A stretch of DNA of 64,000 nt, taken from NCBI RefSeq assembly GCF_014066305.1, contig NW_023501047.1, positions 496,001-560,000 on the forward strand, in the 5' to 3' direction. Shown here in pieces: positions 1 through 63,956 of the stretch (within the stretch, counting starts at the first letter, position 1; the number at the start of each line of letters is the position of its first letter). The position numbers and the translations under genes were made by a program. Below the pieces are notes generated by a model. It was not told where the DNA came from and ran no database searches. It saw nothing but the letters and a program-made list of their open reading frames with translations. The DNA is from Letharia columbiana (lineage: Eukaryota; Ascomycota; Lecanoromycetes; Lecanorales; Parmeliaceae).

Positions 1-3000
1 CAACGCCTCTTCCCACTGGCCTTCTACAACCCCAACCTTTTCCTTCAAATCCTCCGTCAACCTCGTCTCCTCCCTTCTCTGTTCCTCCTCCGCTGCCCAG
101 CTCGCATCCTTGCCCTGCGCCTCGACCTTACATCTAGCCGCTAAAGCGTGAGAACGTATCTCATGGAGGAGGCAGAGGAGATTGATCTGGGATTCGATGA
201 ACTGATATGTCGATTTTTCCGCGTGGCCGAGGAGTGAGTAGAGATATTGAAGTGGATGGTCGTAGTAGGATGGGTTTTCGGCATATTCGTCCGCTGGGAT
301 CTGGACCTCGAAGCCGTCCAGTTGCAAGGGCACTTTATGCAGGACTTCGAGGAGCGAGGGGGCAATATCCCAGAAAGCGGAAAGCTGGAGTTCGACGCCA
401 CGGCTCACATTGTTCTCTATGACAGACTGGAAAGCTTGAGCACGCTTGCAAACGGCTTGTTGAAATGTGGATCTGCGTTCTTGCGCGTCTTTTGCAAAGA
501 AGAATTCGGCTTCGACATGCTTCTCCCGGTTCTGGGATTGTTTGTAGGGCAAGAGTACGATAGCTTTATATCTATCATTACGTTCGCTTAGGAGATCATA
601 GATTTGCCGATGCAAAGTCTCGCGGGCTTCAAAGAGCCTAAGCCGATATCGGAGTCAGCATTGCTTAATCAAGGCACGAAAGCTGGGTTAACGACATAGA
701 CCTCAGGAGTAGGGGCAGGGGTTTGCTCCAAGACTATGTCTTGTGGCTCAAGATTTGGTAGAAAATAGGGAAGAATAACTCTGAAATGTGCGTACCATTT
801 TAGCTGGGTTAGTTTCTCCAGCAATTCGGGCTGAAAATCGCCTTCTTCTTGAGGCAGGTTCGGGTTCTGCGACTGTGAATCCGAGAAGAGGCGGCTGCTG
901 AGCTTGTCAAGGGAGGCATCGGCTAGTTTGATGCGGTCTGAGAAGAGTGCATGCAGCGGTGTGAGGACAATGTGCTGGTAAAGGTCGAAATCTATTTGAA
1001 TGATCTCTTTTTCGGAACTTGCAATCTTCTCCTTTAGCTCATTCTCAGCATCATCGAAGTCCTCTTGAGAGATTTCGCCGTGCTCAATGCGGAACTCGAT
1101 ATCCTGTCTGTGCAGTGAGTGTTGATGCTTGCACCATGATTCGGCTCGTTGCCTTTTTCCGAGGACTTGCGTGCGGTAAGAACTTGTAATAGTTTCTGCT
1201 TCCTCTTTCTCGTGAAGTGATCGAACCACGCCCCGTACGTCTGCTAGATCTGGGTGACTGTTGTTGACTGCTGGGTGATGTCGCGGATACGGTGGGGGGA
1301 GTGTCACAAGCCGCGAGATGTCTAGTCTTCTCGGGTCAGGAGTGATTGGTGCAGACGAGGGTATTGGGGGAAGGAAAGGTGGTGGAGGTAAAGAGGAATC
1401 TTCTTCATGCAAACCAGTCTTTTCTGGGGGGTACTGGTTTGGACCATATGAAGGCTGTCGACTCGCTCCTGAGGGCTGCCATTGCCCGCCCCCTGTTGAT
1501 ACGGAAGTTAGATTTCCATAAAATGCTGGTGGGTTGCGTGTTTCTTGAGGGACCCCCATATACTTAGATTCGCGTTTTGACCTTTCGAGAACCCTGAAAG
1601 CTTCACCCAGTGGGCCATCGCCGGGATGAGAATGATCTTCGAACCAACGGCTAGCAGCTCTGCCCCTTGAATCTTCATCTTGCCCAGTCACAATACTCAT
1701 ACTTGCTATAGGCGAAAGACATGGTACATAGTCTTTCCAATAGGCACTCTCTGGCCGCTGCTGAGTGCTGCTGTTCGTGGTGGCGCTACTGGGAGACTCG
1801 TGCTTCCGACTGACGGCGGAGGAATCATCTTGTGAGGAGGAGTCTCCCAAAGCACTAGATGCAATGCTTGTCCGCTTCGACATATTCTGCCTTGATAGAC
1901 TTTGATGCCGATCGTGAAGGCATTTATCAGTGCTGGAATGCCCGAAGAGGCCTTGTGTCAACTCATCAACCTCTATGCCGTCTTCTTCGAAAACAGAGGC
2001 GTACTGCTCTCGCCGTATCCTCGACTCAGCTTTCATGAAATGGACAAAGAGATCGAGCCTCTCAGAGTCATTGGCAGCTGCTGCTTCACGTTCTGCAAAA
2101 TTTCGATGTCGTTCAATGGCTCGTCCAGCAAAGAGTTTCGGGCTTTCAGGGCCTAGGAGGTCTTCTAGTGGTTCTTGAGCTGCCTTAGTCGATGGGGTCA
2201 GAGGAACTTGCATGGAGTCATCGAGGTTTGGCGTGTGAAGAATATGAGACACAGGACGCTGTTCAGGCCCAGGCGGCACAATCAAAGACAATGCTTTGGA
2301 AGGACCACTCAGTCGTTTAGGGGGCGATACTGAGAACGTTTGCAGCGGTAAAGAAGGCGATGCGACAGCTGAGGTGGATCGGTCTAGAGTCTCTCTGCCG
2401 GGGGGGAAAAGAGGCGTAGAGATCAAAGTGCCTGAGAAGTGCTGTGACCGGCTAGATCCTGGCTGTGGCGTGTTACACGACGAGACGAACGACACAGCTT
2501 TACCAGAGGATTTTTGGATTTCCGGGCTGTTCAATGCGCCATCCAGACTCTGCATACTCTTACCGCTCTTAGGAGTAGACCTTGCGGTCATCCTTTGCTT
2601 CGAGGCATCCATTTGAGAAGCTGACAGAACCAGATTGGTTGGTCTCACATCGAGACCGTCTGCCCATGGAGCCACACTGCTTGAAGGTTCGACAGCGGAA
2701 TCCTCCACAGCTCTACCCTTGCCATTTCTGCTCTCACTGCGCCGCTCTCGGATACCCATCGCACTACGATTTCTGACTGCAGGGCTACGAAACAACCCTC
2801 CGGCTGAGGAGTCTCTCCGTGGGTGGGCTAAGGCCCCAGCGGTGGCAGTCAATGGATAATCAGTCCCCAACCGTCTCTTTTGTAGTACACTACCAGTATC
2901 TATATGCAACGGCGATGGCCCATGCGAACGGGGTGCCTGATCATTTGTGCCATCTTCATCCCTCCAGTCCGCTGGAGTCGGTGGTACCGTATCAAGGCTA

Positions 3001-4193
3001 GTTCCTGTGCCAGGCGGACGTCTGGACCGGAATGGAAGCGTGGGTACCAATCCGGAAGACGGGCTTTCCATAGGTCGATTTAGACTTTGTGAACGCGCAG
3101 ATGTTGGGGGAGGCCCTGGTGGAGGCGGTGGCAGGGGCATATTCGGCTCCCAGGTGACTGGACTAGGTGAATGACTGCTGGAGCGCGACGATCCCCCAGC
3201 TAGGCCTATTCCACCTGTAGATGCAGCCCTTCTAGCTGCTGGTGGGTGTACCATTGGATCGTTGTGTTTAGCTGAGGATGCTTGAGCAAGCATTTGAGCT
3301 GTATGATCCTGCAGTGCATCAATAGCATCACCGGCCAATGATACTTTCGAGGCTTTTCCTCTCAAGGTCAATGAAGAGAGTAGACGATCTGCATGGTTCT
3401 TGGAACCTGCGCGTATCCGCTGCCCTGGTCCTGGAGGAGGAGGAAATGAAGGCGCCGATGCAGCGTTTGGAGACTGATTTGGAGATGTGTGTTGGCAGAT
3501 CAAAGGAGACCGACCCCCAGGAAATCGTGGGACAAGGTCCGGCGACAAGGTTGTAGCGGCGCTCACTGGCGTACCGTAACGTGAGGATTCGGTGTCAGGT
3601 GATGTAGTATCGGTAGGAGAGATAATATCTGAAGTGCGGCGTGGTGAGTCCTGAGGTTGTTGATCTCGACGAGGTGAATACGGTGGTGGTGGAGAAGCGA
3701 CTGGTTCTATACCGGTCTTCATCAGTTGGGTCCTGGCCAGATAGGAGTCACCCTTACCATCAGGTCCCACAAGACGGGGAGCTAGGTGCGCTGTCCTCGA
3801 TGATTGACTTGTCTGCCTGTGCTCTCCTGCCATTGACATTGAATTGGGGGAGATGTTGACGCTGTTCACCGCACCCCATTGTTGAGGATTGTAGTGACCA
3901 CTGAAGCCAGAAGCGGACCGGGAGGCCGTGGGCGATGCTCCTCTCATGGCTCCACCTGGAGATGGATATGCAGAGAATGGGCTACTCAGAGTAGTGCTGG
4001 AGATGGGTGTCTGTACCACTCCTCCAAGTCCAAGACCAAGACCAGCGTTGCGTGCATTTCCCAGACTTGTCGTGAGGAGGTTTGGGGGCTGGTTGGGGGT
4101 CTGACGCTGTCGAGGAGGTGTTTCTATTCCTGCTGGTCCTCCCGAGACGTTATACGGGTGAGGGAGACTCATATCCACTGGGCCAGGGGTCAA
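1..4193 (-). CDS. Uncharacterised large Ser/Pro-rich protein with helical C-terminal region (3' end outside window)
   Basis: I do not recognise this protein. Exon 1 is 4193..796 and exon 2 begins at 637 and runs off the left edge. Roughly the first 900 residues are low complexity, rich in Ser, Pro, Gly and Thr, with PPPPYSPRR near residue 170 and further proline runs near 350, which suggests a disordered scaffold. From about residue 1000 the sequence becomes charged and predicted helical (HEKEEAETITSSYRTQ, ENELKEKIASSEKE), and this continues through exon 2 (LFEARETLHRQIYDLLSERN, AEEEQRREETRLTEDLKEK), so a coiled-coil or helical-bundle domain is likely. The exon junction is phase 2 and joins QLKW to LFEARE. 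The intron is a long introner-like element. The first in-frame ATG, at 4193, was taken as the start. Unread intron sequence is open for about 46 codons and would truncate the protein. The gene itself is clear; its function is unknown. Confidence 0.8.
638..795 (-). mobile_element. Introner-like intron, copy A (158 nt)
   Basis: Intron of the large uncharacterised gene, with donor GTACGCAC at 795 and acceptor TTAG at 638, phase 2. It is two to three times longer than ordinary introns here and aligns without gaps to the 158-nt intron at 21386..21543 in an unrelated gene (about 22 mismatches by eye). It contains a perfect hairpin, CAAGAC-ATA-GTCTTG, and an AATGCTGACTC branch-site block near the 3' end. 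Known biology: introner-like elements are multiplying spliceosomal introns reported in Dothideomycetes. Membership in that class is inferred from repeated sequence inside introns of unrelated genes. Confidence 0.8.
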
Positions 4194-20986: not shown

Positions 20987-22620
20987 TCAACTCGGAAACA
21001 TGTTATCCACCTCAGTGGCTTCAATGATCATTTTCTCCATAACTTTAGTCAACCCTGCTTTTTCAAGGCTTTTCACCTTCTCCGCCTTCGTATCCGTACA
21101 AAATACACCATGTTTCAAGTACCGCCATCTGGGTTGCTCTGCCCATGTTACGCCTGCCGGAATATAATCTGTAAGTGTTGCAAAGTCCTTTTGGCCGAGT
21201 TCTTGATCCAGCCTTTTGTTATCTCGTAAGCCACCATTTAGCCAGAATGGGTCCCCTTTCGAGTCAAGATGCAAGAGTTGGACGCTGCACATTTCCTTTG
21301 CTCCCGCCTCGTAATGGCCTATCATGCCGGTGTAGAAGGGGTTAAAATAGTAGGGTGTGGAGGCGAGTTCGCAGGCGAGCCAGAACTGAGCACAATTCAG
21401 AGTCAGCATTGCTTAGTCAAGGCACGAAACCTGGGTTAATGACATAGATATCAGGAGTATGAGCAGGGCTTCGCTCCAAGACTATGTCTTGCGACTCAAG
21501 TTTTGGTACAAAACGGGGAAGAGTAACTCTGAAATGTGCGTACCGTCTCCTTGTCGCCGAAGACATGCTTGTTTACAGAAACCCTCGCAGCTTTAGTCAT
21601 CATCCAGGCTGCAAACATCAAACTAGTGAAGACGCCGGGTTTCTCTTTGTCCATGAAGACAACGCCGGACTCTTGTTGGTGCTCCAGCTTTTCAGTCCAA
21701 AAGATGCTTTTCTTAAGCACGGCGCTAGGGTTCCGGTCTTTGAGCACCTTCTTAATCCACTTCAGGGTATCGATCCAGCCGGTGTAGCCTCCTTTGACCG
21801 CTCGGTCATGATAGAAAAGCGTTCCCGTCTCCCTCAAATGCACATCATCGTCGAAATAAGCATCAGGCCGTTGCAAGAAAATGGTATCCGCATCAACGAG
21901 TATGGCTTTCTGAAATCGGCTGGCGAGCATGGCGAACGGCTTCATGACCCAGCCGTTACCCGTCAAGCTCTCGTTTATCCCAGCAACAGTATCATCGTAG
22001 AAATCGAGTATGTTCAGAGTCTGGATATTGGGGGCAAGATCCCAGAGCTGTTTCCGCTTTTCCCAAGGCAAGTCATGCTCGCCAGCGTAAAAGATCTGGA
22101 TTGGGAGGGTTGACCCAAGTACATTGCGAAGGATTCGGATGTTCTGCGCAGCCAGGACAAGATCTTTCTGACCTACGCACATGACTATGCCCACTTCTGA
22201 CTCCAATGTGTTTCCCCATGGCAGGTATGTTTTGCTCGAAAGCCTCCACCAGCCAAATTCCTCGGTTCGAAAGCCAAAGAAGCTGTCTCGAGGGATAGTA
22301 GGATCTTCTATGATGGCCCCAAGTAGAGTAGAGAGGGCGGAAACGCGCCGACCTTTGCCCCCAAGATCTGATACATCTATATCCTGTTCAAGCAAGCTTT
22401 CCAGGGCGGAGGTAGCCTCTTGGGCAATACGAACATAGCTGCCTGTGGTTGTTGACTGGTGACTATGGGTGCTCGAAAATGAATTTCCATTCGCCCCCTG
22501 CTGTCTCGAGGCATTGAAGCTTGAACTCCTCGAAGCGAAGTATAGTGCGGAGGCGAGGATGAGGGAGACGGCCCCCAAGATAGCAAGCCTCCCCCGAGGG
22601 TTCCTTAGGTCAAATTTCAT
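20987..22620 (-). CDS. GT71-like alpha-mannosyltransferase (MNN1 family), type II Golgi membrane protein
   Basis: Likely adds alpha-linked mannose to N- or O-glycans in the Golgi. Exons are 22620..21544 and 21385..20987, about 491 residues. A short cytosolic tail (MKFDLRNPRGR) is followed by one membrane anchor (LAILGAVSLILASALYFAS), then a Ser/Thr-rich stem and a lumenal catalytic domain. The DxD metal/nucleotide-sugar motif is in ILVDADTIFLQRPD. Family segments include GIVMCVGQKD, LPIQIFYAGEHDLP and the post-intron FWLACELASTPYYFNP. The splice is phase 0 and joins FGDKET to FWLACEL, as expected in the family. The intron is a 158-nt introner-like element. The exact member (Mnn1, Mnt2-4 or Mnn2-like) cannot be assigned by eye. 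Confidence 0.9.
21386..21543 (-). mobile_element. Introner-like intron, copy B (158 nt)
   Basis: Intron of the mannosyltransferase with donor GTACGCAC at 21543 and acceptor CTCAG ending at 21386, phase 0. It has the same length as copy A (638..795) and aligns without gaps, about 86% identical by eye. The hairpin CAAGAC-ATA-GTCTTG is retained unchanged and is flanked by TCGC and GCGA, which could extend the stem across a bulge. The AATGCTGACTC block near the acceptor is also retained. Confidence 0.8.
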
Positions 22621-23465: not shown

Positions 23466-26400
23466 ATGGCCTTTTTCACGCGAGCCTGTGTATTAATATT
23501 CTTGCTGATATTTTCCCAGAAAACTCAAGTCAGCGCTTTACCAATCGGCAACGCAACGGGCTTACTCTCCACATCCATACTTAGCAAGACACTTATTCAA
23601 AATATCTGGGAAAATACAACTACTACCCAATATCCACCCACAACAACAGTACAAAACACAATTCCTGGTACAATAGGGGTCAGTGGCTTTTCCTTCCATC
23701 ACCTGGAAACGTAGAGTTTCAAGTTGTCCTTCAGAAAAATAGGGAGCTTACTTGGATCAGACCGTTGTTACAAGCCTTGAGACACAGGGCCAGCCATCAT
23801 TGCAACCATTCCCGACCTATATACCACCACCCATCATACTAACAACAGCATTCTCCCGAGATCTTTCACTGATCACGGATAGGTCATCGAAAGCGTTGTC
23901 TACCAAGGTTACGAGCATTAGTAGCGTATTGTGGTTGCCAAAGAGCCACCTCCCATCCACGAAGATGGAGAGAAGAGGAGCCACAGACTGTTTCCAGCCG
24001 GTTGCCACTGGAGCATTGCCCAGACAATTACCATCGAGAGGAGATCATCCAGTCCCTAGACTTGGTATAGTAAGTTCCACATACCCCTAGGTCATTCGAA
24101 AATGCCAGAGAAGCTGATACAACCACAGGCCCCGCAGAGCAGCCCAGTCTCTACCAACAAGTTCTATGCCAACCTTTTCCTTGGAATTCAGAGCCAAGGG
24201 GTATGGACTCATCCATACTCTGTGACATGGAGCAAAGGAAGCGGCAACATTGGTAGTTGGGGCATGGCCGTCTCTCATATTGATGCAAACCAGAGAGCCG
24301 ATGGGCCACAGAATACTGCCCTGTCGGGAGCACCAATACAGTATTTCATCAATCCTATTGGCATTCAATCCGTCATTTTATCCGCAGTAGAGCTGGGACC
24401 TTCCGCGGTCTTGACTACCTCCAGCTTAAAGGCATTCTCGGCCAATGCAATTCTTTCGCCCCAGGCAGGCTCTTCCTCCAATATCACGTTTCCGCTCGTT
24501 CAAGGCATGGGATTCGTAACCGGTATTTACAACAGTCTCATGCCCGCGATTCAAAGCAGTGTATTCTTCCAATCGGTCACTCTAGTAGCCTCTCCAAGGG
24601 TTGGTGTCTTCAAGTATCGGATTATTCTCGAAGACAACAAAAACTGGCTTCTCTACGCAATGCCAAGCAACCACCAAGACCCTAATTTGCAGCTTGTGTC
24701 GAACACACAAATACAAGGTCTACGATTCTGGTCAGGTACGATTCAAATTGCGAAAAACCCTGCTGGCTCAGAGGGCGAGGAACTTTATGATAAATCTGCG
24801 GGAATCTACCCCATCAGCGCAGCGGTCACAGGCTCTACATTGGATAAGCTTGGTACCTATACTATCTCATGGCGTATTAAGGGACTGATAACATATCCAC
24901 CTCGTTCGCTTCTGATGTACGCTTTACCGCATCATACTCAGTCTTTTGACAGCGCTACCACCAAGCACAAAACAAATTTACAGCTCCAGACAACTACGAA
25001 AGGAGTGGCAACAGCGGTTGTCGCTGATAGGTATGTACATTTCGGAGCAATCCTCTCCCAAATGACGCCACAATTTGAGGTGCAAGACTTATTTTGGGAG
25101 CACCAATGGCCTTAAGCCCCCTCATGCTGTCTCGTTCCTCCGAAGTTCCTCTCGAAGAAACAAAGCTGACTTGAAAATTTCCATAGCTGGACGATGCAAG
25201 AGCAAAGCCTGCCTTTAGACATTGGTTTTGCACCTTGGACTCCAAGAACTAGAAGCAGATCGACCCTGTCCGCAGCGACAAGGCAGCTCATCCAACAGGT
25301 GGCAGTCTCTGAGATCAATCAAGACTACAACGCCCAGACCAATCTAGACAGTACGATTCAGAGTTTCTCCCGAAAGAGCAATGCTGACTCCGAAATCATA
25401 AAGGCATGTATTTCAGTGGCAAGGCTCTAGCCAAGTTCGCAATGATCATATACACGACCCACGACCTGTTGAACGAACCCAACCTTGCGACTCAGGGACT
25501 GAATGAACTAAAAGGAGCCTTTGCTGTATTTTCGACCAATCAGGTACGTACATTTTGGAGCTGATCGTTCCCATACAACATTGGAATTGAGTCGCAAGAG
25601 GACCTTTCTGCCCCCGAGACCTGGCTTGCAGCTCCGTTACCTACCTCGAATAAGAAATGCTGACTCTGAAATCTGCGTAAGCAAAAATACCCATTGGTAT
25701 ATGATACAGTCTGGAACGGAGTCGTGTCTTCAGTGAGCTACATTACGGGTGACCCCGGCCAGGATTTCGGAAATACATATTACAGTCAGTCTACTTTTCG
25801 AATTGTTTCTACCCCCCCACCAGAAGCCTACCGCTTTCCGAGTCATCAGACATGTCCAAAGAGTATATGTACTCCTCTTACCTGTATCACCTCAGACTTC
25901 TACCCATAGAAGGAATGCTGACCCAGAATTCTTGAAGACGACCATCATTTCCATTACAGCTACTTCATCTACTCGGCTGCCGTTATAGGCTATCTCGACC
26001 CCTCCTGGCTCTCCCTCAACAAGGCTTGGGTCAACACCCTCGTCCGCGATGCTGCCAATCCAAGCACGCAAGACAACGCGTTTCCCTTCTCTCGAATGTT
26101 CGATTGGTATCATGGCCACTCGTTCGCCCCAGGCCTCTTCCCATTAGCAGATAGCAAAGATGAGGAGTCCTCATCCGAAGACGCTTTCTTCGCGTATGCA
26201 ATGAAGATGTGGGGCCATGTTATCGGCGACATCTCCATGGAGGCGAGAGGTAATCTCATGCTATCGATCTTGGCCAGGACTCTGGACAATTACTTTCTGT
26301 TGTCAAGTGATAATGAGAACCAACCAGCCAATTTCCTTGGCAACAAAGTCACTGGCATTGTGAGTCCTCTCCCGGCCTCCCGTCCCAGATAGGCCCTCGC

Positions 26401-30210: not shown

Positions 30211-31667
30211 AGCGCTTGTCAGTCTTGTACGGTGGGTGGAAGAACGAGGGAAGGGGACGGCTGTGGACAAAGGGACTGCGCCAATGTGCCAGTGTGGGTG
30301 AGAGATGCAAAGGACGACAAAGCTCCCTTTATCGCATTGGAAGAGGGGTGGCAAGTAGTCGTTGTTTGAGCGCTTTACTTACACATATCCACGGTACCGG
30401 GCTCGTATTTGTATCTGACAGACTCTGGGCTCTCGAGGCCAATTGAGAAATGCTGCTTCTGCTGCGCAAGGGAATTAATTGGCACTGTCGGGACTTCAGG
30501 GAGCGAGGGAAGGTATGCGATTATTGCTGACGTCCTCGTGAAGATTGCTCAATGCAGTACCAGATGGTTGACGTGGATGGTGATGCGCTACCATGCATCC
30601 CGCGAATCAAAATTGACGCCGGCTTGGCGGAATTGTGGCAGTGCTCTTGGCAGAGCAAGTATAATTCGCCCAGGTACTTTTGAACTTTTTAGGTAAAGTA
30701 AGGTAAGGTAAGGTAGCTACTAACTAAAGTAAGGTAGAGCCCAGTACGGGTATATCCGCCACTAGCACGGGCCCTGTTGAAGTTGAAGCCCCCCACCACA
30801 CCCCCACCACCCCTATTTATTGACGCGCCTTGAAGCTCGACGATTGACCATTGACGCCTGGCTGGTGGCCTCTATCGTGAACTTCTTCTGTAGGATCTTA
30901 CCTTCCCTTCCCTTACTCCAAGGTATCCTCGGTACTTTACTACCTAGCGCAAATCTGCCTCCACATTTTCACAACGCTCTTGACGACGACGCAGGCGTTG
31001 TATTTTCCAATCGTCAAACACACTGCTACAATGTTGCTAAATACCAATTACTTCCGTGTGCTGTGAAATGTCACTTTTCGCCTGGATCAAGAAGGTGTCG
31101 TGAGATGGTTTACGTTGGCAAGCAACCGATACAGCTCACGGCTGCTATTTTGTCGGATGATATGCCTGTAGGGCTTTTGAAAGCCTCCCACCGCCTCCGT
31201 GCATCCTAGGCCTCTCCATGCTTAGCTAACCAATGAGCCCAAGTAAATGAAAACCAAGAATTTTTACGTAGACCGCCCCCTTCGAAGTAGCATCATGAGA
31301 AGTCCGATAAGCTGACCAAAAACAACAACAGTCGCGTACACGTCGATAATGTCCAGCCCAGAGAATGCCGTCGCAATGAGTATCAATGAACAAGACTCAA
31401 TTCAAGCTACCGGCTAGCAACCCATTTCCAAAACACAAATGTCCAGAGTCTCTTCCTATACTAATACACCGGCTCGAGCACCGAACTCAAAAGGTGTCCA
31501 CATCGCCCACGTACGACCAAGTGACACCATCTACCGGATGTTTCAAAGTCAGCGCTTCTCCACCAGAATGCAAATCAAGTCACAGGACGAGTCCTGAGAG
31601 CAGTGTCGAAGACGAAACACATGTGTAAGCTCAGGAACATGGCTTGAGACTCAGAAAGGGATAGACG
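30211..31667. other. 1.46 kb intergenic region
   Basis: Upstream of VCX1 and downstream of the lectin-like gene. Apart from the short AGGTA tandem repeat at 30691 no structured element was seen. A few short plus-strand frames (for example 30820..31209) have no recognisable domain. Confidence 0.4.
30691..30737. repeat. AGGTA pentanucleotide microsatellite
   Basis: Imperfect tandem copies of AGGTA/AAGTA at 30691..30715 followed by degenerate copies to about 30737. A simple intergenic repeat with no evidence of function. Confidence 0.7.
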
Positions 31668-33168
31668 TCAGGAGAAGAAAACCCCGAAATATGCCATACC
31701 TGGTGCAAGTTGATACTCCTTCACACTCCCATCCTGGAAAGCATAGATGTGCGACGCGGCGTTGGCAGCAATGGAGGAGTAGTTTTGGACCTGGGCCAAG
31801 ACTCCAGAACTCGGTACTGAGGTCCAGTCGCCGTTCGTGAAATTGAAGTAATTGACAGTAACACCGCTTGGGCCTGTGCTCACAATGTCCAGATACTCAG
31901 CTCCGGATACATTCCAGGTAAAGCCGGCGAGGGGTGCCTGTGTAGATAGGTCGGAAATAGGGTTGCCTTCGTTGACAGTCCAGCCCTGGGATTCATTGAA
32001 GCTGGCTGAGCAGAGTCCTTGATTAGCGGGCTGATAAAACACAAGCAAACCTCCCGTATCGTCTGTTCCATGCACGAGGTTGAAAGCCAATCCTGTTCCT
32101 GGCATTGGATTGGCGTCCAATGTTATCCATTGAGGCCCCGCGTTAGCGGTCGAGTTGAATAATGCTAACTTATCGTCGCTATTTTGGCACACAAGCAGGA
32201 GATCGTTCGAGCAATCGTTACATTCATCGTGTCTAAACCAGAGTGTAGCTAAATTTGCACCATCGGCAGGAATCTCACTGAGGCTGCTCGGACTCCAGGA
32301 CTGGTCCTTCTCCTCGAATTTCGTAAAGATTATACTACCATCCTCAGAAAGGTAGAATAGGCTAATTTCCTATGAGCCGCAAGGAACAGTGAATTAGCCC
32401 ATATCACGGTCAGTGACTCAAATCACCTACGAGCAGCCAATCCGGAGGACCCGTGTAGGAAGCTGCGATTGGCGAGCCACGTTTCGCCGGTCCATGCGAT
32501 TGGCCGGATGTATACCACTGATTTCCCGTGTCATTCTTCCCAACCTCCCTAATCATGTTGTCTTCCGTCTGATACCACATTCGATATTCTGTCACGCCAT
32601 TGATATTCCAAACTACAGAGGCAAGTTTTGTGGTGTTGAGTAGTGTAGTGTTAAGCTTTGCTGCTGGCGTGGGAAAGGAAGACGCGGTCGACATGGTCGG
32701 GATTGAGACACTAGAAATAATGGTTGACGACGACTTTGCCGATGAGCTCATTTTGGTCATTGTTGACGAAGGCGCTTGATCACTCAAAGAACCTGAGCTG
32801 ACCGAGCGATGGCTTGTACGGGTACTTCCAATACCACCACCTATTGCAGCAGCGGCACTTATGATGACAATGCCCAGTGCTACGAGGAACCAGATAGCTC
32901 TTTTGCGTGGGCCACGACCTTCCCGGACGAGTGTGGTATGATTATCGCTCTCTATATTGCTGGGTGTATCGAGCGAGGCATCAAAGATCTCAGGTTGAGG
33001 TAACACGGTAGTCGATTGCTTGTATGTGTCGAATAGTGAGGAATCGGGCTGTCGGGACTCCAAAGTACTATAAATCTGGGGCGGATCAGGTTGATGCCCT
33101 ACCTCCAAAGTACTGTGCACCTGTCCGACTTCTGGGGCCCTGTAGAAATCACGATCGGACATCTGCAT
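31668..33168 (-). CDS. Type II membrane protein with fucose-specific-lectin-like beta-propeller
   Basis: Exons are 33168..32431 and 32369..31668 (intron 61 nt, phase 0, joining PDWLL to EISLFYLSEDG), about 479 residues. A cytosolic tail is followed by one membrane span (AIWFLVALGIVIISAAAAIGG, about residue 90), a Ser/Thr-rich stem, then repeated short modules with Trp/Tyr and acidic residues: VVWNINGVTEYRMWYQTEDN, LLVGDLSH-side ISLFYLSEDGSIIF, LLVFYQPANQGLCSASF and AEYLDIVSTG. This pattern resembles the six-bladed fungal fucose-specific lectin family (AAL-like), common as membrane-anchored proteins in ascomycetes. Ligand-binding residues could not be verified by eye. Two ATGs lie close together (33168 and 33162). 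Function, possibly glycan sensing or adhesion, is inference. Confidence 0.75.
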
Positions 33169-44251: not shown

Positions 44252-47200
44252 GCCTGGAAGTTGGATATTGAGGATGATTTTCTGTACTTATTAGGGCAGA
44301 TATGGCTGGGAGGGAGGTGAGACGGTGTTCACAACGTCAATTTCCAAGCAAAGCCGAATGCATGGATAGGATACAAGCGGTACATTTGGGCGGATGTCAT
44401 ATTTTCCATATTTTCGATATTTTCGGATCAATTACAAGTCATGGCTTTCCCTCAACTTCCTCTGCCCCACCACTGAGCCCCTCTCCCATCCATCTCAGCC
44501 ATGTCTCCACAAAGACCGCAAGTACCCGCTTCCATCCGATCATCTTCCAGTAGAGTATGTAGAGACAAGAGTGTGCTCGGCAGGAAAGTAGCGGGCTCGT
44601 CCGCAGGTGCAATGAATGGGAAGCCTGGATCTATTGAATCTATGTGGTTCCTGATAGTCTGAGAGTCTGACAACAACTACTCGTTTCAAGTTCAAATCCA
44701 AGATGAATCACGTGATAGCTTCTTGGCAAGGCTGCAACTTAGTCGCACTCTCTTTTCTACAAGTCAAAATTTCAGCAACTTCACAGCCCGAGCATCATTT
44801 CACGACATCACAAAGCCACCCCCGAGCATATGCTGAATAGATAATTCTATATGTCGTTGTCATTGTAAGTGTTCTGGTCCTATATCTTCCCTTCCGAAGC
44901 CCCTTCCTTACCTGATGATTTGTTCAAACCGCAAAACTAGAGTCTTTGACCCTTCCGGGGCATGAAACTTTTATTGCACACGTCAGTCTGATCCGTGTCA
45001 TTGTCTTTCGCTTCATATCATTGAAATTTTGACGCCAATCCTCAAATTGACGGCAATGCAGGTCACGGTCAAGTTTGGAAGCCTCATACGTACGGTACGC
45101 ATCCTCAAATCTCGTCTCCCCCGCCTAGCACACCTGCCTACCTTTCTACAACTGAGCGACGATGATCATTCGTACTATGTACGCTGGAAATTACCGACTG
45201 AGACCCTAGAGGTCTTTGACGACAATAAATGGCTTAGACTGAGCTCTTCTACAATTATACATCATGCCATCTATAACATGGGCTAGGAACATTTGACTGA
45301 CTGGACGAGCGTCACAGGCCAGGAGCTGAGTCGGTTGTCTCCTGGTGGTAGCACATCTATTGGCACCTCATTGAACATGGGAACCTGCCCTTGAAAACCT
45401 AAAGACGTTTGGCAATCATGAAGAGGGAAATCAGCAGTAAGCGACCTTGGGCCAAATATCCGCCCTCTTTTCCAGCACGGATCTTATGATGAATGGCACT
45501 GGGCTCCGATAAAAGCAATAAGAAGATATGCCTTTCTGTGGCAGGCCTAGAAAACCTCGCCCACTGAATACCACACACCTGTTCCCTGTTACTGTCTCGG
45601 AATTTTTTCAACGCAGCAGCTGATCCTAGATTACAGTCTTCTTTTGAATTTTTCACGTCGAGGGACCCTCAACCCAAAGATCTCGTCTCTGCTTCCAGAC
45701 CCCCCTAGTATGTACATACAGAGACGGCAACTCACACCTCCGCTACACAAAACGGTGGGCGAATCAGTAACGACAGCCTCACCTTTGGGGAGACTGAGTA
45801 AGGTATGCCGCCCCTGTTCGAGTACCTAGATGCTTCTGTGATGATCACCTAGATGACGAGTCTGATTCGGGTTTCCGATGTAGACACACTTATTATATAT
45901 ACCATTCATGCATATCTGACGAAGCCATACTGTTCCTTCTTTAAGACCTGTTCTTTTGTGCGTGTGCTAACAACACTCCAAGCTCACAGGTCACAAATTA
46001 TTGTCGCATTGGTGCGATCGAGGCCCGATCAAGCATCCCTACCCTTGAAAGCGGTACGTCCTCCATTCTCGATGCGTTCAACCTTCTTAAATGATGATTC
46101 CAAACAATCAAAAGACAAGCATATGTCCAAGTTAGCTTGACCGCTATCAAAGAAGAGACTGTTCGTACTGATCCGCTTCTCGCGATCTTTAATCGGCTAT
46201 AACACCATGAGCCAGTACAGGTACTGACATACTCGGTGAAGGTTTTGTTATCCACTTCTTTGGCCTGTCGAGCTGTGAACATCTCTAACGTCCGGTATGT
46301 TTCCCTACTTGCAATCCATAGCCCCCTTCAAATGATGATCAAATTTCTACAATCTCACGACGGTCGGCATAGCTACACTCTAGCATTGATGAGATTGCCC
46401 ATGACCGGGCATCAGATCTGACATAATTCCTGCACTGTCACTGTTGCGGACATTTCCGAAGCCTCTTTGCTGTGACGTCATACTTACTTTCATCTTCAAG
46501 CAGATGAGAAACGCCTGCCAGCGAGTGAAAGGAATGGGTTACTCGACGCAGATTGACGAATTCGGCGACGCGGACCAGCGACAAGTGCTTGAACGGGTGG
46601 GCCAGATTTGCTACAAAACTACGCGAGTCTGCGGATGGATGATGGTACGGGCTTTAAGGGATTAAGATCAGCACAGCGGGCTGAGGAATGTAGCAACACA
46701 TCAGCTTCCGGATAGGAAAGATCGAGGACGTTCAATGAAATCTTCCACTTCTCTCAAACTATTCATCAATGATTCTATCTAGACATGATTCGGCGAATTT
46801 GCTCTTGGCTTGTCAACAAGATTGATGCTACCAGTACATTCTCCGTAACAGACGCCGAAGCTTCTCTCTTCTCCGGAAGAAAACCATACAGGTGAAGGAT
46901 GATGGCCTCGAGCCAAAAGATGTCATCCCCTACGACTCAAGATCTAGACATCAACCTACGCTTCTGACAATATCACCTGCGCATGGGACACGTCAAGGTG
47001 GGACAGTTGAATCATCACTGATTGAGCTAAGCATCTAGCTAGATCAATCACATGCCTCTTCCAGGCATTTCATCATTCGATCCAAAGCCACCGCCTGATG
47101 GTGTCATTCCAAACTTCCATTATCCATGCACGCACATAAGATGCTCAAAACAGATTCGTATAGATGGAACGCCGTCACAATGCCGCTTGCTAAAACGCTC

Positions 47201-53572: not shown

Positions 53573-54060
53573 GCTGGGCAAAGCTCAGCTGGAGTAAGTA
53601 TAGAAACCTGGGGAATGCGATCAGCTACAGATCCCAACCAGTTGTTGAAGCTGAAAAGGACAAAACGGTGGTCTATCAGATAAATGGAGATCTAAGCTCC
53701 GACAAAGCTAATCAGCAGAAAAAGAGTACAAATCTTCTATGACTGGTGCCAGCTGAATGTATCATCGTGTATTGGACGTAACGTAGAGGGAGCGAAGAAT
53801 GTACGGCTTACTTACTAAGGTCAATAAGGTCAGAAATCTTTTCCTTGCCAGTAATACTGTTGGCTGCTTTCAATCACTCACCAATGTAGCAATGAGGAGA
53901 ACTGCCGTCACAGAGAGAAAGCTCTTCAAATAAGGAGGTGGAAAGCTCTAGAAATTCTGCGGAGTGCATGTCCGAGAGCCCGCTAGCTCAGCCCTACGGA
54001 CTTCTCGATCTCTAGCTGCAAAATTGCAGCACAATCCCTCTTCCCAGTGCACTTGATTCT
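53573..54060. promoter_or_regulatory. Divergent AHA1 / EngB promoter region
   Basis: 488 bp between start codons. I found no clear heat-shock element (nGAAn arrays) despite AHA1 being a chaperone gene. Nothing else recognised. Confidence 0.35.
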
Positions 54061-61641: not shown

Positions 61642-63956
61642 TCAATAACGAAATGAGAAGGGCCCGTGTCCGTACATTGGGTAAGTGGTGGAATCACCCC
61701 TGTTGTTCGTGACGGCACCATAAGGCATCTGAGAATGTGGCAGTCTATTGTCCAAGGGAGTGTACACCGGATGTGGCGGGTATGCCGGAGCTGCTTGCCC
61801 ATAGATGGATCTATAGGCAGGATGAGGGCCCTGAGCTGGTGCTGTGGGGCGTGGCGGCAATCCCCAAGGAACTCGTCTACTGGAGTTGGAAGCGCTCGGG
61901 GGGTTTGATCGCCTGTCTCGTCTGTCTGGAGTAGAAGATGCAAGCTCTGTCTTGGGGTGGAGGATTGCGGTCGCCGAATGCTCTGCTTCGAAGTACCTCT
62001 GCACAAGGTTGCGACCTGCTTCGCCAGGAACCCTAGAGAAGACGTTCGTGAGCACAGCCCAACCAACCGATGAGAACCCTCCTTACGTGTTCTAAAAGAT
62101 TTCGGAGTCAGTACTTCTCTTGTCGCATGGTTATAGAGTCAGGAGACATGTCTCAGGAGGCGGAAAAGGTCCCTGGCCCCCAAGATATGTTGAAAAGGGG
62201 AATGATGGGTCGGAAAAGGTAACTCACTGCATGTCTCAATTGGGTGACACGTTTGTCATTGTAATTCAAGTCGTCAAAGGCGGAGAATTCAACATCTTTG
62301 GCAACGATCCATCGCGTCGGAATCACTCCTTCATTGCCTTGAAGTCCCTCTGTCCAAATATTAACTTCCCTCTCTGGATCGAATGGTCCGGACATTTCCG
62401 CCAGACCACAGTACTTTCCACCATATCTATGACTGCTTAAATGGTCAACGAAATTCTCTCCACCAAAGGAAACACACCATACCTATGGGTGATGGAAAAC
62501 ATGAAAATGATCTTTTCCCCTGGCTTCCTGCTCTCCCAAGCATTTTGGAGCACTCTATTTGCACCCTTCGTTGATGACCAGACTTCGTGTTCCACCGAAG
62601 CTCGCAGGTTATGGATATTGGTCGATTTCATGATGAACACTTTCGACTGCCATTCCGTCAGCTGATGGATGTCCACATGCAACAGCAACTGCGACCTACT
62701 CCATAGGGAAGAGAGAGTGTTTCAGGATCAAGACTATAATTTTGGTACCTCAGATGAACGCGCAGCCCACTCCGTGCTCGGCGGTTCTCTTCGAATGGAA
62801 GACCTTTGCGTGACCATACTGGTGGCTCTTTTGCCTCGATGGAGCTGACTTCATCCGTCTGAACAAGGCTATCTTTCCTGACGGCTTTAATATCATCTGG
62901 TCCCAATACCTTCATATTTGCTGGTACCTGCGGTTTTGGAGCTTCCAGCTCTACGCCTACAGAACATTGTCGAGCCTGCGGGGCTTCTTTCAAGTCGGAG
63001 AGGGATCTTCGCCGTTGAATTAGAGTACAAAGTCTCGAGGGTTTGACAAGCTGTGGTGTGAAGGGTCGTTTCCACGGTCCAACCTGACCGAGAGCTAGCA
63101 ACTGGTACGACTCTTCATCAGGCGTTGAGCTGAGGACTAGATCCGCAAGAGGAGACCGAGTACGACAATTAGCACTCATAACGGACCGCTCTACTTTGAC
63201 AGATGGGTTCTGATCTCCCATCGCCGCCAAGGTCCTAGGCAAAACGGCAGATCTAGTCGAAGCAAGATGATCTCCTACAGCACCGAAGCTGCTCGTTGTT
63301 CTCCCGCTCGATGAGGAAGAAGACGAGGTGTATGCGTAAATGATGGATTTTCCGGTGATAGCTTCCCCAAGAATTAATGATGTTGGCGCGTTGCTACTCG
63401 GTACTTGGATCTTCCAGTGTTCGGAGTCAGTCGTTATTCTTCGAGATGGCAAAGGGGTGACAACACAAGGCATGTGAGTATGGTACTCTCGAAATATGCC
63501 TCTGGGTTCTCATTGGGGTACGGATTTGGAAGAAATTGCTCCGAAACGTAGACGTACCTGCAGTCCACTTTTGGATCGGCCGGTTGCCCTGCGACTGCTA
63601 CCCCATCTCAACGGCATAAGAGCCTGATCGCTTGGTACCTTTCTGATAGTGTTGATTGCCTCGTCTCCCGGCTCGACGATTGGCAGACCTTGCAGGAGTA
63701 TCTCCTCATCTTGCAGTGGATCACCCTTCTCGATGTACTTCGGCTTTCGAGAATCCTTTCGATAATCAAACGGCTCGACATCTGGAATCTTGTTGGCGGG
63801 AGTCCAGCCTGATGTGTGTTTTTGACGACGATATGGTCCGCAGCCCAATTTGGAGAGCCGCGCAGATGGAGTATCTCCTTGCTTGGAGTAATCCGAAGGT
63901 AGTATCGACCTATTGCATCTTGTAAGCTTCGGCAACGGAAGATATGCTAAAGACAT
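61642..63956 (-). CDS. YTH-domain RNA-binding protein (m6A-reader type), 5' end possibly outside window
   Basis: Exons: 63956..63558, 63410..62749, 62695..62483, 62432..62228, a 5-nt exon 62091..62087, and 62032..61642. The YTH domain spans QSKVFIMKSTNIHNLRASVE to NLVQRYFE and includes HEVWSSTKGANRVLQNAWES, IIFMFSITHSHRYGGKYCGLAEMSGPFD, VNIWTEGLQG and VIPTRWIVAKDVEF. Aromatic-cage positions: Trp in EVWSS and NIWTE are present; the third position is Leu (in EGLQG), as in YTHDC1-type readers. The N-terminal half is Ser-rich and basic; the C-terminal tail is Pro/Tyr-rich. The micro-exon (AACAC) is needed to connect QLRHA to VPGEAGRNLVQ as -HANTVPGEAG- in frame. Known role of the family: recognition of N6-methyladenosine in mRNA. 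The start at 63956 is only the first ATG available; translation may begin upstream of the window edge. Confidence 0.85.
62087..62091 (-). other. Proposed 5-nt micro-exon (AACAC) of the YTH gene
   Basis: Lies between intron copy G (62092..62227) and a 54-nt intron (62033..62086, GTAAGG...CTCTAG). Omitting it makes the phases incompatible: the donor before it is phase 0 and the acceptor after it needs phase 2. Including it gives HANTVPGEAG. The in-frame TAA just after AACACG is removed with the 54-nt intron. Confidence 0.6.
62092..62227 (-). mobile_element. Introner-like intron, copy G (136 nt)
   Basis: YTH intron with donor GTGAGTTACC at 62227 and acceptor TTTTAG at 62092, phase 0. Its centre (GGACCTTTTCCGCCTCCTGAGAC) closely matches copy E in the glucanase gene, and it ends AGTACTGACTCCGAAATC before TTTTAG, like copies D and E. 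The 5' end has diverged to a standard donor. Confidence 0.55.
63411..63557 (-). mobile_element. Introner-like intron, copy H (147 nt)
   Basis: YTH intron with donor GTACGTCTACGTTTCGGAGC at 63557, phase 0, ending with CGACTGACTCCGAACACTGGAAG. The 5' block is very like copy C (ACATTTCGGAGCAAT) and the 3' block like copies A and D. Central sequence is diverged. Confidence 0.6.

What the first reader, a model, noticed from the sequence alone, without database searches (positions are those of the whole stretch)
638..795. Same 158-nt intron in two unrelated genes (copies A and B)
The intron at 638..795 and the one at 21386..21543 have identical length, orientation relative to the gene, and about 86% ungapped identity (22 mismatches counted by eye), yet the host genes share nothing and the splice phases differ (2 versus 0). 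That is what intron multiplication by an introner-like element predicts. The elements are long and include a conserved internal palindrome.
Basis: partly seen in the sequence, partly recalled or inferred. Interest (0 to 1): 0.88.

Follow-up and report, generated by a model that had tools for sequence, protein, structure and literature searches.

The report
Self-copying introns in a lichen fungus
Two unrelated genes of what is very probably a lichen-forming fungus carry the same intron of about 155 letters because it belongs to a large family of introns that appear to copy themselves into new genes, and whose two ends are predicted to pair in a hairpin, which bears on the open question of how genes acquire introns.

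Summary
In detail: 638-795 and 21386-21543 are 158-nt introns with 22 mismatches, unrelated flanks and phases 2 and 0. They belong to a large introner family. Two end patterns find 140 places in the 52-Mb genome, 0 in reversed controls; the window holds nine members, four of them in one GH81 glucanase gene. The best named relatives are Lecanoromycetes (lichen fungi). Copies are GT-AG introns, median 155 nt; ordinary introns here are about 55 nt. Where a host could be read they sit in sense orientation in coding genes, insert seamlessly, and show no target-site duplication. Terminal inverted repeats of about 17 nt hold both splice sites, with the branch-point motif at their inner edge; five group consensi fold into long hairpins, single copies more weakly. 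Homologues in relatives lack introns A and B, and some relatives carry family members at other positions of gene B. Two paralogues carry different copies 12 nt apart. This fits known fungal introner-like elements, in a class for which my searches found no report. The likeliest mechanism is RNA-mediated re-insertion of the excised, folded intron; a DNA transposon fits less well. Splicing was not tested (no reads).

The parts
638..795 (-). Introner copy A, 158 nt, GT-AG, phase 2
21386..21543 (-). Introner copy B, 158 nt, GT-AG, phase 0, inside a mannosyltransferase gene (PF11051 spans the junction)
25031..25186 (+). Introner copy in a GH81 glucanase gene, 156 nt
25351..25403 (+). Cropped introner in the GH81 gene, 53 nt: ends kept, middle lost
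25544..25681 (+). Introner copy in the GH81 gene, 138 nt, third-best match in the window
25785..25937 (+). Diverged introner in the GH81 gene, 153 nt
31531..31699 (-). Diverged introner; frame open 670 nt upstream but only 41 nt downstream when removed
62092..62227 (-). Diverged family member; boundaries and host frame not resolved (scores on both strands)
63411..63557 (-). Diverged introner, 147 nt; frame open 414 nt upstream and 750 nt downstream when removed
796..4193 (-). Host gene A, exon upstream of copy A (long ORF, no Pfam match in the 260 residues scanned)
1..637 (-). Host gene A, open frame downstream of copy A (runs off the window)
21544..22620 (-). Host gene B (mannosyltransferase), exon upstream of copy B
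20990..21385 (-). Host gene B, open stretch downstream of copy B
24102..25030 (+). GH81 endo-beta-1,3-glucanase gene, first exon found; the coding sequence continues between and after the four introners

Best explanation
Copies A and B belong to a mobile family of spliceosomal introns (introners) that has spread in sense orientation into many genes of a Lecanoromycete genome. SHOWN: at least 140 related places, seamless junctions where tested, strong sense bias, no detectable target-site duplication, lineage-specific positions, and group consensi predicted to fold into long hairpins. INFERRED: each copy is removed from the pre-mRNA by the U2 spliceosome; the excised RNA folds by its terminal repeats so that its first and last G come to lie next to each other; this RNA is occasionally put back, by reverse splicing or ligation coupled to transcription, into the coding strand of another gene and copied into DNA; afterwards the copy loses symmetry, and some shrink by internal deletion to ordinary intron size (53 nt at 25351-25403).
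For: Copy number: blastn 15 places; 3' pattern 75 and 5' pattern 97 places, 0 in controls; 32 shared, 140 distinct, capture-recapture about 225 well-conserved copies. Seamless and coding: the spliced frame is open at least 90 nt on both sides in 57 of 79 copies against 33-36 of 79 for joins shifted by 1-2 nt; mean codon score 2.58 for the exact join against -1.1 to -1.4 for shifted ones; a Pfam domain spans the junction in 15 of 20 spliced peptides, one by two residues only (the 20 were picked from 54 printed because they looked like known enzymes); removing four members from the GH81 gene gives a protein that aligns to solved GH81 enzymes with no gap at the four junctions. Sense: of 40 flank ORFs of unclear copies (40 of the 90 listed, from 23 of 30 loci) 9 of 22 sense and 0 of 18 antisense ORFs hit Pfam; 61 of 65 neighbouring copies have the orientation of the best copy of their locus. 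No TSD for k = 1-10 in 68 of the 79 copies. Gain: 120 of 120 listed homologues read across junction A, four close ones across junction B; both introners of a glutathione reductase gene are absent from 120 of 120 listed homologues; paralogues L047 and L082 carry different introners 4 codons apart, each empty at the other's site. Family in relatives: of 8 ORF tails of gene B homologues tested, 4 (P0017, P0018, P0019, P0027) match translated introners better than any of 160 shuffled tails, best E 2.6e-9, at two positions other than ours. Hairpin: group consensi fold at -65, -50, -71, -53 and -48 kcal/mol against shuffles of -35, -30, -37, -25 and -26; 60 of 67 copies still form at least 8 terminal pairs.
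Against: No RNA reads, so splicing is inferred. RNAalifold on 60 copies found no common structure, and the consensus of the A/B group keeps only 62% of the main group's pairs with no compensatory change. Reverse splicing alone does not need a hairpin. The open-frame test is weak for a single copy, since shifted joins also pass in 33-36 of 79; counting it and Pfam, 16 of 79 host contexts stay unresolved, as does the window copy at 62092. 4 of 65 neighbours are opposite (two loci). The codon score favours sense in only 57 of 79, and antisense joins pass the shuffled threshold in 16 of 79 against 46 sense. The closest pair outside a segmental duplication differs by 6.6%, so no very recent activity is shown. 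Three gene B homologues (P0005, P0006, P0009) stop at the site of intron B, so some relatives may have an intron there. Inverted repeats are also what a DNA transposon would have.
Confidence: 0.66

Rival explanations
1. The introners are non-autonomous DNA transposons (MITE-like) moved by a transposase acting on their terminal inverted repeats, whose ends happen to be splice sites.
For: Clear inverted repeats at both ends in the consensus; most introner families outside the ascomycetes have TIRs, TSDs or both (PMC9860276, sections 7 and 8 read).
Against: No target-site duplication; both splice sites lie inside the element, so none is borrowed from the target; strong sense bias; no copy was shown to lie between genes, though 16 of 79 contexts are unresolved. 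No search for a transposase was made.
Confidence: 0.13
2. Excised intron RNA, or a DNA copy of it, is captured at random double-strand breaks (the filler model of Fekete and co-workers), and selection leaves only copies that can be spliced.
For: Seamless insertion, weak site preference and no TSD; adjacent and nested copies, as that model allows (PMC12403724 discussion read).
Against: Random breaks should also leave neutral copies between genes and in either orientation; the evidence here is sense and genic, although 16 of 79 contexts are unresolved.
Confidence: 0.18
3. A and B descend from an old segmental duplication or exon shuffling that carried an intron along.
For: One such pair exists elsewhere: L046 and L048 share host gene and intron.
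Against: Flanks of A and B match at chance level; the 140 places have flanks near background composition in the 68 copies examined.
Confidence: 0.01
4. The shared sequence is a conserved structured RNA housed in introns (for example a snoRNA) that was copied for its function.
For: A long hairpin in the consensus.
Against: No Rfam match at any family member in the window; RNAalifold finds no structure common to 60 copies; introns are lineage specific where compared.
Confidence: 0.02

Closest known systems
Introner-like elements (ILEs) of Dothideomycetes (van der Burgt 2012, not read, cited by others; Collemare 2015, PMC4457414, abstract and introduction read)
   Same: Canonical spliceosomal introns in many copies in unrelated genes, seamless, several sequence groups in one genome, predicted stable structure (as cited in PMC8469720), decay towards ordinary introns, parallel gains within a few bases
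   Different: Another class of fungi (Lecanoromycetes); terminal inverted repeats of about 17 nt holding both splice sites; the closest pair found outside a segmental duplication differs by 6.6%, whereas active ILEs reach 98-99% identity. Sequence similarity to ILE families was not tested
Symmetrical sister stwintrons and cropped introns of Hypoxylaceae and Xylariaceae (PMC8469720, parts read; PMC12403724, abstract and discussion read)
   Same: Terminal inverted repeats that bring the first and last G together, seamless insertion, no TSD, sense strand only, cropped derivatives, symmetry strongest in the least diverged copies
   Different: The six copies tested here (A, B, four in GH81) are single canonical introns, not nested (D1,2) introns; the 10-nt palindrome WTTCTAGAAA is absent from the five consensi (read by eye); 140 places here against 23 full-length sister stwintrons in Hypoxylon sp. 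CO27-5
Introners moved as DNA transposons in algae and other protists (PMC9860276, sections 7 and 8 read)
   Same: Inverted repeats in part of the families; many copies creating introns
   Different: No TSD, both splice sites carried by the element; that paper states that ascomycete introner families have neither TIRs nor TSDs, so this family is a further exception on TIRs

Membership tests
Fungal introner-like elements (ILEs) | Spliceosomal introns at coding positions that restore the frame | tested here: met
   57 of 79 open at least 90 nt both sides against 33-36 of 79 for shifted joins; Pfam across the junction in 15 of 20 chosen; four introns of the GH81 gene. No RNA reads
Fungal introner-like elements (ILEs) | Hundreds of copies in unrelated genes | tested here: met
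   140 distinct places by two end patterns, estimate about 225, and further diverged copies beside them
Fungal introner-like elements (ILEs) | Near-identical copies (98-99%) in active families | tested here: inconclusive
   Among 67 copies the closest pair outside a segmental duplication differs by 6.6%; not every genomic copy could be read
Fungal introner-like elements (ILEs) | Seamless, without target-site duplication | tested here: met
Fungal introner-like elements (ILEs) | Sequence relation to a named Dothideomycete ILE family | not tested
   No such sequences were at hand
Hypoxylaceae symmetrical sister stwintrons | Internal intron nested between G1 and T2 of an external donor | tested here: not met
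   A, B and the four GH81 copies restore the frame as single GT-AG introns; L006 has a nested arrangement that resembles it. Not tested copy by copy
Hypoxylaceae symmetrical sister stwintrons | 10-nt palindrome WTTCTAGAAA | tested here: not met
   Absent from the printed group consensi (read by eye)
Hypoxylaceae symmetrical sister stwintrons | Terminal inverted repeats pairing the intron ends | tested here: met
   At least 8 terminal pairs in 60 of 67 predicted folds; terminal stem in three group consensi
Transposon-type introners | Terminal inverted repeats | tested here: met
Transposon-type introners | Target-site duplication, often supplying a splice site | tested here: not met
   68 of 79 copies; k = 1-10, largest z 2.1; 845 offset combinations, largest z 3.0

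The most novel reading that the evidence does not exclude
One hairpin-shaped, RNA-propagated introner family has been inserting introns across a whole clade of lichen fungi, separately in each lineage and in thousands of copies per genome. It reached the same terminal-stem design as the Xylariales stwintrons independently, which would make a stem joining the two intron ends a general requirement for intron copying in ascomycetes.
Probability: 0.35. Interest if true: 0.8.

Novelty: new member of a known kind. Interest (0 to 1): 0.62.

Why it matters
How new spliceosomal introns arise is a long-standing question. As far as my literature searches show, this family adds the Lecanoromycetes to the known sources of intron gain. 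It is a further exception to the published statement that ascomycete introner families lack terminal inverted repeats, and it offers filled and empty sites in close relatives, with which RNA-mediated insertion and transposition can be told apart base by base. It also shows one plausible step from introner to ordinary intron: a 53-nt remnant in a gene that still has three long copies.

Tried and rejected
From those two tables I took 63 of 124 rows, picked by eye because a neighbouring exon match lay near, to measure intron gaps.

Rejected: that most ordinary introns are visibly decayed introners. 28 of 29 candidate short introns score 6 or less of 15 for the 3' motif, one scores 11, and 1 of 29 intron gaps in P450 and chaperonin genes has introner size. 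Rejected: segmental duplication for A and B, and known RNA families in the window. Set aside: a preference for insertion beside existing introners; several copies lie 0-9 nt apart, but some of these are fragments of one element.

Caution on empty sites: proteins marked only lgn or ena look like ORF calls without splicing, because several stop inside introns; that is my inference from their shape. Contigs of a few kb could still be assembled mRNA, so I lean on hits from long contigs: for B P0001 (19,853 bases) and P0002 (59,072), for glutathione reductase P0069 (152,106), for A P0197 (149,161) and P0201 (137,826). P0189 (97% identical, source not shown, 6,828-base contig) reads straight through junction A and may be either mRNA or an allele without the intron. 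Of the 8 gene B tails tested, P0016 (6.6e-4) and P0008 (0.31) are at most suggestive, and P0007 and P0014 give no match below 0.03.

Full report
WHAT IS THERE. On the coding (-) strand both begin GTACGCACATTTCAGAG and end in AG, with a GCTGAC branch-point-like motif near the 3' end. The 60-nt flanks match at 12/60 and 11/60. Without its intron gene A reads open over 1,345 codons; gene B is a mannosyltransferase whose Pfam domain crosses the junction. Phases are 2 and 0.

HOW MANY. Blastn with copy A finds 15 places in the 52.2-Mb genome. The 3' end pattern finds 75 places and the 5' end pattern 97, with 0 for the reversed patterns. 32 are shared, so 140 distinct places, and a capture-recapture estimate gives about 225 well-conserved copies. 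A profile of 60 copies finds nine places in the window at E below 1e-4; the reversed window has nothing below 0.38, the block-shuffled window nothing below 1.5, and the reversed loci nothing below 0.26. Beside the best copies of 83 loci the profile finds 65 more copies. Seven extra members in 64 kb would extrapolate to some thousands per genome; this rests on one window and is weak.

WHOSE GENOME. The best named relatives are lichen fungi. For glutathione reductase they are Lecanoromycetidae sp. Uapishka_2 (81%), Lecanora helva (77%) and Psora testacea (76%); for gene A, Lecanora helva (71%). Lecanora helva is in Lecanorales, Lecanoromycetes.

THE ELEMENT. Median length is 155 nt (79 copies). 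Ordinary introns, measured as gaps between neighbouring P450 or chaperonin exon matches, cluster at 44-77 nt (26 of 29 gaps, median 55). The consensus starts GTACGTACATTTCGGAG and ends CTCCGAAATGTGCGTAG, an inverted repeat that contains both splice sites, with the branch-point motif CTGAC at the inner edge of the 3' arm. Five sequence groups each have a consensus predicted to fold into a long hairpin: main group (37 copies) -64.8, group of A and B (12) -50.3, GTTC group (9) -70.9 kcal/mol; two older groups (10 and 9) -53.3 and -47.8. Means of mononucleotide shuffles are -25 to -37. In the main and A/B consensi the first and last G are unpaired, next to the terminal stem. Against the main group's 55 pairs the other four consensi keep 62, 85, 72 and 69% of comparable pairs (slid controls 27-58%), with 0, 3, 4 and 7 two-sided compensatory changes. 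Single copies fold less well: median -43.7 kcal/mol, median z -2.2, although 60 of 67 still form at least 8 terminal pairs. RNAalifold finds no pair common to 60 copies, and copies further from their nearest relative have weaker hairpins (Spearman 0.37, p = 0.002, n = 67). The hairpin thus looks more like a property of the copying element than something the host gene keeps; that is inference.

WHERE IT SITS. Of 79 copies, 57 have a spliced frame open at least 90 nt on both sides; for joins shifted by 1-2 nt the number is 33-36, and for the reverse strand 33. The exact join alone has coding-like codon use (mean 2.58 against -1.1 to -1.4); by this score sense beats antisense in 57 of 79, and 46 sense and 16 antisense joins pass the shuffled threshold. 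A Pfam domain crosses the junction in 15 of 20 spliced peptides, chosen from 54 printed because they looked like known enzymes. For unclear copies I scanned 40 of 90 listed flank ORFs: 9 of 22 sense ORFs and 0 of 18 antisense ORFs hit Pfam. 61 of 65 neighbouring copies share the orientation of the best copy in their locus; the 4 others are in two loci. 16 of 79 contexts pass neither the 90-nt test nor Pfam, and the window copy at 62092-62227 is unresolved. In 68 of the 79 copies, exon flanks show G at -1 (60%) and a purine at +1 (74%), otherwise near background, and no target-site duplication. Phases are 19/24/14 for the 57.

SEAMLESS. The GH81 gene at 24102 has four family members as introns (156, 53, 138 and 153 nt). 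Taking them out gives a protein that aligns to GH81 crystal structures (4k35, E 1.2e-74) without a gap at any of the four junctions. The 53-nt one keeps only the ends of the element.

GAIN. Junction A is continuous in all 120 listed homologues (of 1,055 found), 99 of them from lgn/ena only; ORFs cut short by an intron would rank lower and could be missing from that list. In the glutathione reductase gene of L033 one introner sits at residue 371 and a second adds 45 codons in frame that no listed homologue has (120 of 120 lack it and read across residue 371; the best 120 of 7,996 were listed). For gene B, four homologues (P0001 to P0004, 79-86% identical) read across the junction, while P0005, P0006 and P0009 stop exactly there, so some relatives may have an intron at or next to this position. 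Of eight ORF tails tested, those of P0017, P0018, P0019 and P0027 match translated introners (E 3e-5, 2.6e-9, 2e-7, 1e-5; best of 160 shuffled tails 3.6e-4), at two positions where the window's gene has no intron; the other four tails do not beat the shuffles. Within the genome, paralogues L047 and L082 (66% identical) carry different introners 4 codons apart in the same phase, each empty at the other's site. So insertions happened after these lineages and paralogues split.

MECHANISM. Shown: copies, seamlessness where tested, orientation bias, absence of TSD, lineage specificity, predicted hairpin of the consensi. Inferred: splicing, RNA intermediate, re-insertion. Sense bias, both splice sites within the element and no TSD argue against cut-and-paste transposition; the inverted repeat argues for some role of pairing between the ends. 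The Xylariales work proposes that a near-terminal stem keeps the terminal Gs together and may protect the RNA (PMC12403724, abstract and discussion read; PMC8469720, results parts 1-2 of 3, discussion and part of the legends read). The same anatomy here, in another class, fits that idea.

KNOWN OR NEW. It works like, and meets most tests of, fungal introner-like elements. Searches for introner with Lecanoromycetes (0 papers), introner with lichen (2 papers, listing only, titles not about lichens), stwintron with Lecanoromycetes (2 papers, listing only) and spliceosomal intron with lichen-forming and intron gain (4 papers, listing only) showed no report of lichen introners. The library holds open-licence papers only, and the supplementary species list of PMC9860276 was not seen. 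I therefore call it a new member of a known kind, notable for its terminal repeats.

Noticed in passing
window 45155-45921 (+) and 53675-53770 (-): Three C/D-box snoRNA genes in a cluster (Afu_300, Afu_513, snR75) and one more (Afu_190), above Rfam gathering scores.
   Followed up: no
L006:1329-1795: Three family members in a row; one lies between G and TAAGGC of the next donor, so the arrangement resembles a (D1,2) stwintron.
   Followed up: partly
L070:1366-1665: Two introners of different groups abut with no exon between them.
   Followed up: partly
L046 and L048; also contigs C77 and C109: L046 and L048 are a segmental duplication with the same introner and host gene; C77 and C109 give equal match scores in two searches and may be another.
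   Followed up: partly
L055:1338-1714: A tandem pile of introner pieces beside a mitochondrial carrier gene.
   Followed up: no
P0005, P0006, P0009 (gene B homologues): ORFs stop exactly at the position of intron B, which would fit an intron at, or one base from, the same place in relatives: a possible parallel gain.
   Followed up: partly
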